NCBI GenBank assembly: GCA_013393545.1
Contig: JABXHG010000190.1
Span: 1-23,533 of the forward strand
Source: Alteromonadaceae bacterium
GTDB taxonomy: Bacteria > Pseudomonadota > Gammaproteobacteria > Pseudomonadales > Oleiphilaceae
Length of the DNA stretch: 23,533 nucleotides
Direction of reading: 5' to 3'
Positions 2,601 through 21,913 of the stretch are shown here, piece by piece. Position 1 is the stretch's first letter. Every line of letters starts with the position of its first letter. The position numbers were made by a program, and so were the translations under genes. The notes under the pieces were generated by a model. It was not told the origin of the DNA. It was given only the letters and a program-made list of their open reading frames with translations, and did no database searches.

Positions 2601-2714
2601 GAGCGAGCGACTGGAAAGGCTTTGGGAAAATTTCGAAGGCCATGGATGGCCTGAGAGAAGCGCACAGGGAAGTGCTCGTAGCGGTTTTCGCAAAGCCTTT
2701 CCAGTTGGTCGCTC
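2601..2714 (+). repeat. Three-way-junction repeat, copy A
   Basis: Intergenic inverted-repeat element between kdsA and eno. The outer stem pairs 2610-2624 perfectly with 2691-2705 (15 bp), extended outward by AGCGA/TCGCT beyond a 3-base internal mismatch, and inward by GAAAA (2626-2630) with TTTTC (2685-2689). Inside are two hairpins: AGGCCA-TGGA-TGGCCT (2637-2652) and GCAC-AGGGAA-GTGC (2662-2675). They are separated by 9 bases ending in AAGC and followed by a 9-base tail (2676-2684). Copies B and C share the core and spacings but have different stem sequences. Function unknown; it could act as a folded RNA in the kdsA-eno transcript or be a mobile REP-like element. Confidence 0.85.
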
Positions 2715-2724
2715 TGGCACCAGT

Positions 2725-2752
2725 TTGATAGTCACCTTAGTGTTTAGATAAA
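2725..2752 (+). promoter_or_regulatory. Candidate sigma-70 promoter for eno
   Basis: TTGATA (2725-2730; one mismatch to TTGACA) lies 16 bases before GATAAA (2747-2752; four of six match TATAAT), just downstream of repeat copy A and 22 bases before the eno start. If real, it would let eno be transcribed independently of pyrG-kdsA with a very short leader. Judged from sequence only. Confidence 0.35.
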
Positions 2753-2774
2753 GAAAATCTGGAGACATTTTCGC

Positions 2775-4070
2775 ATGACCAAGATTGCCAACATCAAAGG
2801 CCGTGAAGTACTGGACTCACGCGGTAACCCCACCGTAGAAGCCGATGTCATACTGGAAGACGGCACCCTCGGCCGAGCCTGCGCTCCCTCCGGCGCCTCC
2901 ACCGGCTCCCGCGAAGCCCTGGAACTGCGCGACGGCGACCAGTCCCGCTATCTTGGCAAAGGTGTTCGCAAAGCCGTGGAAGCCATCAACGGCCAGATTC
3001 GTGACGCCCTCCTTGGCAAAGACTCCGCCGACCAGCGCAGCCTCGACCAGATCATGATCGACCTGGACGGCACCGACAACAAAGCCAACCTTGGCGCTAA
3101 CGCCATCCTCGCCGTCTCTCTGGCCGCCGCCAAAGCAGCCGCAATCTCCCTGGGCAAGCCGCTGTACGAACACATCGCCGACGTAAACGGCACCTCCGGC
3201 CAGTTCTCCATGCCGGTACCGATGATGAACATCCTCAACGGTGGCGAGCACGCCGACAACAACGTCGACATCCAGGAATTCATGGTTCAGCCGGTTGCGA
3301 CCAGGAGCTTTGCCGAAGCCCTGCGTGTCGGCGCAGAAATCTTCCACAGCCTGAAAAAAGTGCTGAAAGCCCAGGGTTTGAACACCGCCGTGGGTGACGA
3401 AGGCGGCTTTGCGCCCAACCTGCCGTCCAACGAAGCGGCACTGGCGGTTATCCAGGAAGCGGTTGAGAAGGCCGGTTACAAGTTGGGTAGCGATGTCACA
3501 CTGGCTCTGGACTGCGCGTCTTCGGAATTCTACAAAGACGGCCAGTACCAGCTCTCCGGTGAAGGCAAGAGCTTCGACTCCGAAGGCTTTGCCGATTACC
3601 TGGCCGGCCTGTGCGAGCGCTTCCCGATTGTTTCCATCGAAGACGGCATGGACGAGAGCGACTGGGACGGCTGGAAAGTGCTGACCGACAAGCTGGGCAG
3701 CAAAGTTCAGCTGGTCGGCGACGACCTGTTCGTCACCAACACTCGCATTCTCAGCGAAGGCATCGAGAAGGGCGTGGGCAACTCCATCCTGATCAAGTTC
3801 AACCAGATCGGCAGCCTGACCGAAACCCTGGACGCCATCAAGATGGCCCATGATGCGGGTTACACCGCCGTGATCTCCCACCGTTCCGGTGAAACTGAAG
3901 ATACCACCATTGCGGACCTGGCGGTGGCCACCTGCGCCGGTCAGATCAAGACCGGTTCGCTGTGCCGTTCCGATCGCGTGGCCAAGTACAACCAGCTGCT
4001 GCGTATTGAAGAGGCGCTGGAAGGCAAGGCGCCTTACCGTGGTCTGAAGGAGATCAAGGGCCAGGGCTGA
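2775..4070 (+). CDS. eno: Enolase (phosphopyruvate hydratase)
   Basis: Interconverts 2-phosphoglycerate and phosphoenolpyruvate in glycolysis and gluconeogenesis; in many proteobacteria it is also a degradosome component. The 431 residues are full length. Visible are the substrate loop [18 protein letters not shown] with the catalytic acid E209, the metal-ligand segment SIEDGMDE, the catalytic base K341 in LIKFNQIG, and the signature SHRSGETED. Start: ATG at 2775 with GGAGA at 2761-2765, a spacing of 9 bases. Its product phosphoenolpyruvate is a KdsA substrate, so the kdsA-eno neighbourhood makes metabolic sense. It is followed by a hairpin and a strong terminator. Confidence 0.98.
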
Positions 4071-20457: not shown

Positions 20458-20637
20458 GATGATGTCCGAACCTTTTGTCAGTAAGGGTTGGAATGCCAAA
20501 GAACGGGGCGCGGGCACAACCGGCATTGATTGGCCCGGGTAAAGACCCCATATGGTCAGAAACAGGCGCAGATGATACCTTCCAAGCCAGCAATTTTCAC
20601 CTGCATCCGTGCTTATGAGCATATTCCGGAGCCCCCG
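20458..20637. promoter_or_regulatory. Divergent metG/mrp intergenic region
   Basis: 180 bases between the divergent starts of metG and mrp, which must hold both promoters. For mrp a weak candidate is TTGATT (near 20527) with TATGGT downstream. GGAG at 20628-20631 is the mrp ribosome site. I found no convincing metG promoter, T-box-like structure or other leader element by eye. Confidence 0.35.
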
Positions 20638-21738
20638 ATGACACAGATTGCCCAATCAGCCCTCGAAGAGGCCATCAAAGACTACCGCGACCCCTACCTG
20701 AACAAGGATCTGTTCGAGCTGGACGCCGTGAAAACCCTGAACGCCGACGACAGCGGCCAGGTCACCCTGATGGTTGAATTGCCATACCCGTCCAAAGGCA
20801 TTGCGGGCGGCCTGAAGCAAATCGTCACCAACGCTCTGGAAGGAGTTGATGGCGTGGAAAGCGCCGACGTGCACGTGGGCCAGAAAATCCACGCCTGCAA
20901 AATCAACAAAGACATCTCCCCCGTGGCCGGCGTGAAAAACATCATCGCCGTCGCCTCCGGCAAGGGCGGCGTGGGCAAATCCACCACCGCCGTTAACCTG
21001 GCTTTGGCCTTGAGCGCCGAAGGCGCCCGCGTCGGCATCCTCGACGCCGACATCTACGGCCCCAGCGTCGGCATGATGCTCGGCGTGCCCGAAGGCAAAC
21101 GCCCGGACGTGCGCGAAAACAAATACTTCGTGCCCATGCAGGCCCACGGCCTGCAAGCCAACTCCATGGCCTTCGTCACTACCGACAAAACCCCCATGGC
21201 CTGGCGCGGCCCCATGGTCAGCGGCGCTGTCATGCAGCTGCTGGAACAGACCCTGTGGGACGAACTCGACTACCTCATCGTAGACATGACGCCAGGAAAA
21301 GGCGACATCCAGCTCACCCTGGCCCAGAAAGTCCCCGTCACCGGCGCGGTCATCGTCACCACCCCGCAGGACATCGCACTGCTGGACGGCAAGAAAGGCA
21401 TTGAGCTGTTCCGTAAAGTTGATATCCCTGTGCTGGGCGTGGTGGAAAACATGAGCGTCCACATCTGCAGCAACTGCGGCCACGAAGAGCCGTTATTTGG
21501 CCACGGCGGCGGCGAAAGAATCGCCGACGACTACGACACCACCCTGCTGGGCCAGCTCCCGCTGCACATGACCATCCGCGAACAAACCGACAGCGGCCAG
21601 CCCACAGTCGTTGCCGAACCAGACTCCGAAGTGGCCCGGCGCTACCGCGACATCGCTCGCAGGGTAGGAGCGGAGCTGTCCACCAGAGAGCGTAATCTGG
21701 GTGGCACGATTTCCAGTGTGTCGGTGACTGAGCATTAA
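20638..21738 (+). CDS. mrp: Mrp/ApbC-family Fe-S cluster carrier ATPase
   Basis: Cytosolic P-loop NTPase that carries and delivers Fe-S clusters. The product is 366 residues from ATG 20638 (GGAG at 20628-20631, 6-base spacing). An N-terminal MIP18/DUF59 domain covers about 6-90. The deviant Walker A GKGGVGKS lies at 108-115, [10 protein letters not shown] follows, and a CSNC motif near the C-terminus is the expected cluster-binding CXXC. Oddity: the conserved D-M-P-P-G-T-G-D motif reads D-M-T-P-G-K-G-D (216-223), two changes each explicable by a C-to-A base change, possibly sequencing error. It is divergent from metG and followed by repeat copy C and the start of dcd. Confidence 0.95.
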
Positions 21739-21804
21739 CGAAACGCAGGTAATTCAGGAAAGGTCTGGCCTGTGAGCTAGTGGAGGCCAGCTGGAAATGA
21801 ATAC

Positions 21805-21913
21805 GCAGGGTCAGGGTCCCCCTCCCAAAAATTTTGAGGGCCAGGGATGGCCCGAAATAAGCGCACAGGGACCGTGCTTGTAGCGGTTTTTGGGAGGGGG
21901 ACCCTGACCCTGC
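21805..21913 (+). repeat. Three-way-junction repeat, copy C
   Basis: Between mrp and dcd. The outer stem is a perfect 27-bp inverted repeat, 21805-21831 with 21887-21913, unrelated in sequence to the stems of copies A and B. Inside are hairpin 1 GGGCCA-GGGA-TGGCCC (21838-21853), a 9-base spacer ending in AAGC, hairpin 2 GCAC-AGGGACC-GTGC (21863-21877), and a 9-base tail TTGTAGCGG (21878-21886). The architecture is the same as in copies A and B. Its right arm begins a tandem duplication. Confidence 0.87.

What the first reader, a model, noticed from the sequence alone, without database searches (positions are those of the whole stretch)
2601..21913. A family of intergenic three-way-junction repeats with covarying stems
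Three elements (2601-2714 +, 4551-4646 -, 21805-21913 +) share one exact layout. It is an outer stem, hairpin 1 with a 4-base loop (TGGA or GGGA), a 9-base spacer ending in AAGC, hairpin 2 with an AGGGA-type loop, a 9-base tail (T-Y-G-Y-AGCG-K), and the second outer arm. The outer arms differ in sequence between copies but are complementary within each copy (15, 21 and 27 perfect pairs). The hairpin stems also change on both sides: AGGCCA/TGGCCT, GGGCCA/TGGCCC and a 9-bp version; GCAC/GTGC and GTAC/GTAC. Compensatory change with fixed loops and spacers points to selection on a folded RNA or DNA, not on sequence alone. I do not recognise a named family.
Basis: partly seen in the sequence, partly recalled or inferred. 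Interest (0 to 1): 0.78.

Follow-up and report, generated by a model that had tools for sequence, protein, structure and literature searches.

The report
Paired GGA hairpins on variable stems
The three elements belong to a large, scattered family of bacterial intergenic repeats in which two near-constant GGA hairpins, shaped like binding sites of the global regulator CsrA, sit on a long stem whose sequence differs from copy to copy but stays complementary; it is a distant relative of RNA and repeat families already described.

Summary
A covariance model from 55 copies finds the element in 31 of 31 sampled genomes of the Marinobacter genus group (3 to at least 123 copies each), 31 of 114 of the class and 11 of 120 of the phylum. 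All 25 modelled outer-stem pairs change on both sides. It is not nameless: some Marinobacter copies approach the Rfam model TwoAYGGAY (RF01731), a Pectobacterium copy passes Ysr224 (RF02770, opposite strand), and by eye the printed Yersinia YPAL/RU-2 repeat has the same core. The window's three copies pass no family cut-off.

Mismatch types show that the GGA-bearing strand is the folded one, in every gene context. In M. salarius 88 of 90 copies carry two CANGGA loops, varying where the CsrA/RsmE consensus is free. Arms change in complementary pairs; copies with identical cores have different arms. Close pairs in that genome are all head to head (11 of 11).

Best reading: a MITE-like repeat whose folded strand, most likely RNA, presents a double CsrA/RsmA site. 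CsrA binding, transcription and the mechanism of spread are inferred; a csrA presence/absence comparison gave no association.

The parts
2601..2714 (+). Element 1, between kdsA (1710-2555 +) and eno (2775-4070 +), sense to both genes
   Evidence: R1 93.2 bits (the copy is in R1's training set); gene names recognised by eye from the ORF translations, not searched
2601..2630 (+). Element 1, 5' outer arm
2637..2652 (+). Element 1, hairpin 1 AGGCCA-TGGA-TGGCCT (CANGGANG loop)
2662..2675 (+). Element 1, hairpin 2 GCACAGGGAAGTGC (GGGA loop)
   Evidence: read by eye; the minimum-energy fold draws it slightly differently
2685..2714 (+). Element 1, 3' outer arm
4544..4653 (-). Element 2, between ftsB (4245-4532 +) and ispD (coding start not determined), antisense to both genes
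   Evidence: R1 109.5 bits (in R1's training set); gene names by eye
4601..4622 (-). Element 2, hairpin 1 (9-bp stem, loop TGGA)
4581..4594 (-). Element 2, hairpin 2 GTACAGGGAAGTAC
   Evidence: read by eye
21805..21913 (+). Element 3, downstream of an apbC/mrp-type gene (20530-21738 +)
   Evidence: R1 91.0 bits (in R1's training set); gene name by eye
21838..21853 (+). Element 3, hairpin 1 GGGCCA-GGGA-TGGCCC
21863..21877 (+). Element 3, hairpin 2 GCACAGGGACCGTGC
   Evidence: read by eye
21882..21971 (+). 45-bp tandem duplication that holds the 3' arm of element 3; the arm next to the core is 100% complementary to the 5' arm, the spare one 85%

Best explanation
What it is: a dispersed, non-autonomous repeat of Gammaproteobacteria, related to TwoAYGGAY and YPAL. 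A core of about 54 nt carries two hairpins with CANGGANG loops and is mounted on an outer stem of about 28 bp. How it most likely works: the GGA-bearing strand acts as a folded single strand, most likely RNA, and offers two CsrA/RsmA sites 22-25 nt apart to one CsrA dimer, so that each copy is a local CsrA landing site and the many copies together a dispersed sink for CsrA. The arms are free in sequence but must pair; a change in one arm is followed by the complementary change in the other, by selection on the fold and possibly also by one arm serving as template for repair of the other. Shown here: family, copy number, covariation, folded strand, the two-loop motif, presence and absence at orthologous sites, paired change of the arms. 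Inferred: transcription, CsrA binding, the sink function, the templating and the mechanism of spread.
For: Both-sided change at 25 of 25 outer-stem pairs in 55 copies. Strand: among arm mismatches on the GGA strand G.T 73 vs A.C 13 in 124 copies with scoring that treats both alike; in 136 CM-aligned copies G.T 105 vs A.C 28, G.A 96 vs C.T 16, G.G 24 vs C.C 2, but A.A 11 vs T.T 13 (each contrasted pair has equal expectation when the arms are complementary in composition). G.T exceeds A.C in every gene context: 19/10 sense tandem, 31/1 convergent, 12/3 antisense tandem, 12/4 divergent, 12/5 inside called ORFs. Motif: 88 of 90 M. salarius copies have at least two CANGGA loops, the N varying T/G/A/C, GGA-GGA spacing 22-25 nt, 3.24 GGA per core against 0.12 on the other strand. 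These fit the RsmE consensus (A/U)CANGGANG(U/A), and 30 of 142 copies (4 of 90 in M. salarius) hold the E. coli CsrA SELEX consensus RUACARGGAUGU in full; both consensuses as quoted in passages of PMC6692469 and PMC6849547. The stem is nearly fixed in length (25 modelled pairs plus 1-4 more in 84 of 90 copies) and free in sequence (best left-arm identity to any other copy: median 0.69, maximum 0.85). Paired change: in 46 ortholog pairs 47 of 1145 arm pairs changed on both sides from one Watson-Crick pair to another and 42 on one side; with flank divergence the first rises from 0.5% to 11% of pairs while the second stays at 2-5%. Presence and absence at one site. Precedent: a CsrA role was already proposed for TwoAYGGAY (PMC4333381, passages).
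Against: No transcription or binding data were available. 3 of 31 element-positive genomes gave no csrA hit, one of them with 30 copies (completeness unknown), and csrA is found in 65 of 83 element-negative genomes, so there is no clear association (no test run). Orientation to genes is at most weakly biased and depends on the gene caller: upstream gene sense vs antisense 74/37, 59/37, p = 0.03, 47/30, p = 0.07. No own promoter stands out in the 5' flank, although it is slightly richer in A+T. A folded single DNA strand would also tolerate G.T better than A.C. The copies were found with a GGA pattern or with a model built from such copies, which favours GGA-bearing matches. The full SELEX consensus is in a minority of copies.
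Confidence: 0.52

Rival explanations
1. Purely DNA-level mobile palindrome: the hairpins are recognition sites of an unknown transposase or recombinase that works on one folded DNA strand, as TnpA-REP does on REPs or integrases do on attC sites (recalled); RNA plays no part.
For: YPAL is described as mobile with variable target duplications (passages of PMC2229807). Presence differs between relatives at one site. There is a regular tandem array of five (L120, period 110), and core and arms lie inverted relative to a repeated flanking unit in 3 of 14 fetched G132 copies (by eye). G.T exceeds A.C whatever the gene direction. Close pairs in four Marinobacter genomes are head to head, a non-random layout that recalls BIMEs.
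Against: Among the 12 largest protein clusters shared between 120 loci (at most 15 loci) I recognised no transposase, by eye and without a background comparison; the freedom of exactly the N positions of the CsrA consensus is not predicted; element 1 with its flanks found nothing in the plasmid and phage collections, and the 52 viral-contig pattern hits show no such layout by eye.
Confidence: 0.3
2. mRNA 3'-end element (transcript stabiliser, RNase III substrate or terminator) of neighbouring genes, as suggested for YPAL and for REP/BIME repeats.
For: Where the upstream gene runs towards the element, its stop codon lies close: median 41 bp, 47 bp, 79 bp. A review states that YPAL is expressed together with upstream genes and may affect RNA stability (passage of PMC2229807; De Gregorio 2006 itself not held).
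Against: Many copies are antisense to their neighbours (window element 2; tandem sense 29 vs antisense 24; 24 vs 18); at kdsA-eno sense and antisense copies occupy the same spacer in different genomes, behind a separate short inverted repeat at the kdsA stop; only 2 of 90 copies have TTTT within 20 nt after the 3' arm, so it does not look like an intrinsic terminator.
Confidence: 0.13
3. No function: the pairing is kept by mutation alone, because stalled replication copies one arm from the other (quasipalindrome correction).
For: Both-sided changes are 27 transitions and 24 transversions, near the ratio in the adjacent flanks of one genome pair (229:185; wider flanks 1674:866), whereas compensation through G.U would favour transitions. 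Copies with identical cores have arms changed on both sides at 49 of 125 pairs and on one side at 2.
Against: Correction of DNA is strand-symmetric and does not explain G.T over A.C at about 4-6 to 1; the hairpin loops stay nearly fixed over many genera.
Confidence: 0.05

Closest known systems
TwoAYGGAY RNA (Rfam RF01731; Weinberg 2010)
   Same: Two hairpins with GGA loops on an external stem; listed for human gut, gamma-Proteobacteria and Clostridiales (table passage of PMC2864571). In G002 its 3 matches (36-40 bits, below the cut-off of 43) all coincide with R1 copies on the same strand. It reaches E <= 0.001 in 26 of 31 Marinobacter-group genomes.
   Different: Only 9 matches in 7 of 31 genomes pass the cut-off, against 3 to at least 123 R1 copies per genome; I did not check whether those 9 are R1 copies. 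The base before GGA is often not a pyrimidine. The window copies give no TwoAYGGAY match at E <= 10 (for element 1 the same clan's CsrC gives 7.2 bits). The above-cut-off match in L128 lies next to an R1 copy but is not itself an R1 match at E <= 1e-4.
YPAL / RU-2 (Yersinia palindromic sequence) and Ysr224 (RF02770)
   Same: By eye the RU-2 sequence printed in PMC2759123 has the same core: GGA hairpin 1, GAGC spacer, TACATGGATGTA hairpin 2, GGCG tail, inner arm. The Pectobacterium copy L064 matches Ysr224 with 73.3 bits, cut-off 70; Pectobacterium copies outside R1's training set score 72.9-76.2 bits with R1 (L114, L136, L152).
   Different: About 168 bp, reported as one repeated sequence, against arms that differ in every copy in Marinobacter; Rfam models the complementary strand; window element 2 scores 17.2 bits with Ysr224.
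CsrB/RsmZ-type CsrA sponge RNAs
   Same: GGA motifs in hairpin loops (review passage of PMC7237705).
   Different: Those are single-locus sRNAs with many sites (22 GGA in CsrB, same passage); here two loops, plus extra GGA, per copy in dozens of copies.
REP/BIME, ERIC, attC sites (compared from memory, not tested)
   Same: Intergenic palindromes in many copies; BIMEs also alternate in orientation; attC also keeps a fold on one strand with variable sequence.
   Different: Here a three-way junction with two GGA hairpins; I looked only by eye for GTAG feet or R boxes (GTAG occurs after hairpin 2 in element 1).

Membership tests
TwoAYGGAY (RF01731) | Score at or above the Rfam gathering cut-off (43 bits) | tested here: not met
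   Window: no family at gathering and no TwoAYGGAY match at E <= 10 for the three elements. 9 matches in 7 of 31 Marinobacter-group genomes pass.
TwoAYGGAY (RF01731) | Two hairpins with AYGGAY loops on an external stem | tested here: inconclusive
   Architecture met. Of 88 G002 copies with two CANGGA loops, loop 1 is CATGGATG in 60; in 27 of the other 28 the base before GGA is G or A. Window loops are TGGA or GGGA in hairpin 1 and GGGA in hairpin 2.
YPAL/RU-2 | Core sequence and layout of the printed RU-2 | tested here: inconclusive
   Agreement by eye with the sequence in PMC2759123; a Pectobacterium copy passes RF02770; window element 2 scores only 17.2 bits. R1 was not run on a Yersinia sequence.
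YPAL/RU-2 | Unit of about 168 bp with the same arms in its copies | tested here: not met
   Window copies are about 110 bp; in M. salarius no two of 90 copies share arms.
YPAL/RU-2 | Target duplications of 3-26 bp | tested here: inconclusive
   None could be defined by eye in the sites read.
CsrA/RsmA ligand | GGA in hairpin loops within (A/U)CANGGANG(U/A), two sites suited to a dimer | tested here: met
   Two CANGGA loops in 88 of 90 copies, spacing 22-25 nt; consensus from passages. The outer A/U positions fit hairpin 2 better than hairpin 1.
CsrA/RsmA ligand | Binding of CsrA and effect in the cell | not testable with these tools
   Needs EMSA, CLIP-seq or reporter assays.
Mobile element with a linked enzyme | Recurrently linked transposase or reverse transcriptase | tested here: inconclusive
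   811 predicted proteins of 120 loci were clustered; none of the 12 largest shared clusters looks like one by eye; no family scan and no background comparison were made.

The most novel reading that the evidence does not exclude
A genome may hold about two hundred CsrA sites in a dispersed, self-rewriting repeat (in M. salarius 88 of 90 examined copies with two loops each): a near-fixed two-hairpin CsrA clamp carried by stems of free sequence and near-fixed length, whose two arms are kept complementary because each can serve as template for the other. The repeats would be an evolvable, distributed CsrA sink, with TwoAYGGAY, YPAL and Ysr224 as glimpses of one superfamily, and a natural system for measuring palindrome-templated mutation.
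Probability: 0.25. Interest if true: 0.85.

Novelty: new variant of a known kind. Interest (0 to 1): 0.62.

Why it matters
It joins separately named items (TwoAYGGAY RNA, the YPAL/RU-2 repeat and the Ysr224 sRNA) in one abundant superfamily and makes a concrete claim testable with a gel shift: that dozens of dispersed intergenic repeats present CsrA double sites. The arms, which differ between copies with identical cores yet change in pairs, should allow fold-selection and palindrome-templated correction to be told apart from population genome data. If CsrA binds, models of free CsrA that count only CsrB/C- or RsmX/Y/Z-type RNAs would be incomplete in these bacteria.

Tried and rejected
Phage or plasmid origin: element 1 with its flanks has no match in the plasmid and phage collections; the 52 viral-contig pattern hits were printed and folded, and by eye none shows the layout. 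Own genome of the window: not held. Dedicated promoter: the 5' flank is slightly richer in A+T than the 3' flank (0.500 vs 0.475, p = 0.002), but promoter scores do not differ (p = 0.33 and 0.15). Asymmetric placement of single copies: 5' gap larger in 31, 3' gap larger in 24 of 55, p = 0.46. Replication: 34/26 and 12/18 plus/minus copies on the two halves of G002, no test made, origin assumed at coordinate 1. csrA association: not seen. ivy-DE (RF02999), a weak hit of element 2 (23.3 bits): 0 of 8 genomes, but the tool warns that nothing rang in its controls either. Rfam on 20 further loci: nothing at gathering. Linked enzyme: none recognised. The miRNA hits I take for generic hairpin noise. 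Literature: the searches listed no paper that by title, abstract or the passages I opened describes these Marinobacter repeats or the paired change of arms; only openly licensed PMC papers are held, listings were often partial (20 of 125 listed, none of the 20 with the three longer core strings), and I opened passages of 13 papers, none in full.

Limits of the counts. One search scored at most 124 candidates per genome and at most 33 and 32 with stricter filters, so copy numbers there are lower bounds; both tallies include G002 itself, and a second genome (G010) of the genus group. One search used 124 of the 132 copies (copies near contig ends and duplicates dropped). One search used 136 distinct of 142 rows and an alignment fitted by a model that tolerates G.U. 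One search placed 96 of 136 in spacers and 23 in called ORFs; 17 were dropped. One search placed 77 of 90 (11 in called ORFs, 2 at edges); one search placed 111 of 124. Of 92 G002 matches 90 were used (two partial ones left out). One search used 46 of 132 elements tried (the rest had no spanning ortholog among the loci fetched; 1 dropped for gaps) and leaves out 3 both-sided changes that are not Watson-Crick to Watson-Crick; its 51 listed both-sided changes include the dropped locus. One search covers one genome pair only. Gene positions come from home-made ORF callers. Covariation on A2 is partly built in, because copies were chosen for arms of at least 12 aligned bases. L183 was not read properly.

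Full report
OBSERVATION. The three elements exist at the stated places, and the shared pattern has no matches in 100 shuffles of the window. Each is an outer stem, a first hairpin with a TGGA/GGGA loop, a spacer, a second GGGA hairpin and a short tail. No Rfam family reaches its cut-off in the window.

FAMILY. By their titles these come from Marinobacter, Halomonas/Vreelandella, Microbulbifer, Pectobacterium, Vibrio, Shewanella, Morganella, Moritella, Idiomarina and other genera that I recall as Gammaproteobacteria (not looked up). 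One search printed 132 copies, three of them in the window. From 55 copies (alignment A2) model R1 was built. R1 finds the element in 31 of 31 genomes of the genus group of M. salarius (G002), 3 to at least 123 copies each, in 31 of 114 genomes of the class and in 11 of 120 of the phylum. The complete genome of M. salarius R9SW1 gives 92 matches. Searches are lower bounds, because few candidates were scored per genome.

STRUCTURE. In A2 all 25 modelled outer-stem pairs have changes on both sides and 90.7% of their cells pair; the covariation score of the whole structure is 0.685 against 0.183 in shuffles and at most 0.176 when slid. The stem is nearly constant in length (25 pairs plus 1-4 more in 84 of 90 copies of G002), but no two of these copies share arms (best left-arm identity to another copy: median 0.69, maximum 0.85). 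In the hairpins the fixed letters are CA-N-GGA: 88 of 90 copies have at least two such loops, N being T, G, A or C and the base after GGA mostly T or C; the two GGAs are 22-25 nt apart.

WHICH STRAND FOLDS. If the folded strand matters, G.T should be tolerated on it and A.C not. With scoring that treats both alike, the arms of 124 copies have 73 G.T and 13 A.C on the GGA strand. In 136 aligned copies G.T 105 vs A.C 28, G.A 96 vs C.T 16 and G.G 24 vs C.C 2, with A.A 11 vs T.T 13 not different (this alignment was fitted with a model that tolerates G.U). Arm composition cannot cause it, because the right arm is the complement of the left. The excess is seen in each gene context, strongest in convergent (31/1) and weakest in sense tandem spacers (19/10), and holds in copies antisense to both neighbours (12/3). 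So the constrained molecule is a single strand of fixed identity that does not follow gene direction: an RNA made independently of those genes or by read-through, or a single DNA strand.

EVOLUTION. Between species, orthologous copies at kdsA-eno and ftsB-ispD keep their arms paired while the sequence changes (both-sided changes at 15, 15 and 9 of 25 pairs in sets of 16, 9 and 9 copies). Of 30 relatives read at kdsA-eno, eight have a sense copy like element 1, nine an antisense copy of another subfamily in the same spacer, and thirteen have none, a remnant or (L183) were not read properly. The closest relative (eno protein 99% identical, DNA of the region about 90%) lacks element 1, probably by deletion, since L182 shares the window's right flank. 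In 46 ortholog pairs from two pairs of genomes, 47 of 1145 arm pairs changed on both sides and 42 on one. With rising flank divergence (1.6, 4.0, 6.3, 10.1%) both-sided change rises (0.5, 0.7, 3.8, 11.2%), while one-sided change is flat or falls (4.0, 4.8, 3.8, 2.0%). Both-sided changes were 27 transitions and 24 transversions; the adjacent flanks of one genome pair have 229:185 and the wider flanks 1674:866. Compensation through G.U would predict more transitions; copying of one arm from the other would not. I regard selection plus some arm-templated correction as most likely, without proof.

CORE AND ARMS ARE MODULAR. In G002, five pairs of loci with identical cores differ on both sides at 49 of 125 arm pairs and on one side at 2. 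In G266, the six pairs of core-identical copies among 13 fetched differ at 3-8 of 24 arm pairs on both sides and at 0-3 on one side, and two copies with nearly the same arms (L437, L441) carry different cores. At one intergenic site of G266 and 29 relatives (left flank 95-99% identical) there are, by eye, different cores and arms, deletions that leave one arm, and sites with no element. In G132, 14 fetched copies with the same or nearly the same arms sit in a repeated unit, and in 3 of them core and arms lie inverted relative to the flanks. In G100 the element sits inside a unit with long terminal inverted repeats starting CTAAATAC.

LAYOUT. In G002, the 11 pairs of copies closer than 600 bp are all head to head, minus then plus (full list). 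The same holds for 8 of 8 in G065 (one of them an overlapping partial match), 8 of 8 among the 74 listed rows of G049 and 5 of 5 among the 76 listed rows of G039. In the 100 loci, drawn from many genera, 13 close pairs are head to head, 5 head to tail (4 of them the tandem array of L120) and 1 tail to tail (L139). Single copies of G002 show no asymmetry. I have no explanation; divergent promoters in the gap were not supported by promoter scores.

MECHANISM. The two conserved loops match the published CsrA/RsmE consensus, and 30 of 142 copies hold the full SELEX consensus (4 of 90 in M. salarius). A CsrA role has already been proposed for TwoAYGGAY (PMC4333381, passages). I therefore commit to a CsrA/RsmA double site presented by the folded GGA strand as the most likely activity, at about even odds. 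Against it: three of 31 element-positive genomes have no csrA hit (completeness unknown), csrA is found in 65 of 83 element-negative genomes, and nothing here shows transcription. In Y. ruckeri, Ysr224 copies were reported as transcripts with different profiles (passage of PMC12112432), but Rfam's Ysr224 is the complementary strand.

COMPARISON WITH WHAT IS KNOWN. TwoAYGGAY is the closest RNA family: its three sub-threshold matches in G002 are all R1 copies on the same strand, yet only 9 matches in 7 of 31 genomes pass its cut-off, and the window copies do not match it at E <= 10. YPAL/RU-2 is the closest repeat: by eye the same core, but longer, mobile with target duplications according to a review (passage of PMC2229807). 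The membership tests are mixed, so I file this as a new variant in that circle and not as a member of either. De Gregorio 2006 was not held and is known to me only through the reviews and from memory.

Noticed in passing
L174 814-1003, L197 3283-3471; L464 and L467 (sequences printed): A second, palindromic insertion of about 80 nt sits in the GGA loop of hairpin 2, starting after CATGG with GTGAGG, in two different genus groups (Marinobacter and relatives of G266). The GGA loop may be a target of another repeat.
   Followed up: partly
G002 (for example 3863293-3863651), G065, G049, G039: Close pairs of elements in these Marinobacter-group genomes are head to head (minus, plus), 10 of 11 gaps in G002 being 38-141 bp; exceptions occur in other genera (L058, L120, L139).
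   Followed up: yes
window 21882-21971: The 3' arm of element 3 is part of a 45-bp tandem duplication; only the copy next to the core is fully complementary to the 5' arm.
   Followed up: partly
L120 736-1283: Five copies head to tail with a period of 110 bp in Paraferrimonas haliotis.
   Followed up: no
G132 loci L415, L420, L422: Core and arms inverted relative to an otherwise similar repeated flanking unit (3 of 14 fetched copies).
   Followed up: partly
G100 loci L423-L428: The element is embedded in a MITE-like unit with long terminal inverted repeats starting CTAAATACGTGTT.
   Followed up: partly
L181 and L194, kdsA-eno spacer: Derivatives that lost the core but kept complementary arms (by eye).
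   Followed up: no
G002: Copies are sparser between 2.0 and 3.3 Mb (11 of 92 in 1.3 Mb, counted from the list) than elsewhere, perhaps the terminus half.
   Followed up: no
L119, L132, L072 gap sequences: Gaps between paired elements can hold another inverted repeat of the type GTCGGATTA...TAATCCGAC.
   Followed up: no
L128 3350-3517: A TwoAYGGAY match above the cut-off lies next to an R1 copy but is not found by R1.
   Followed up: no
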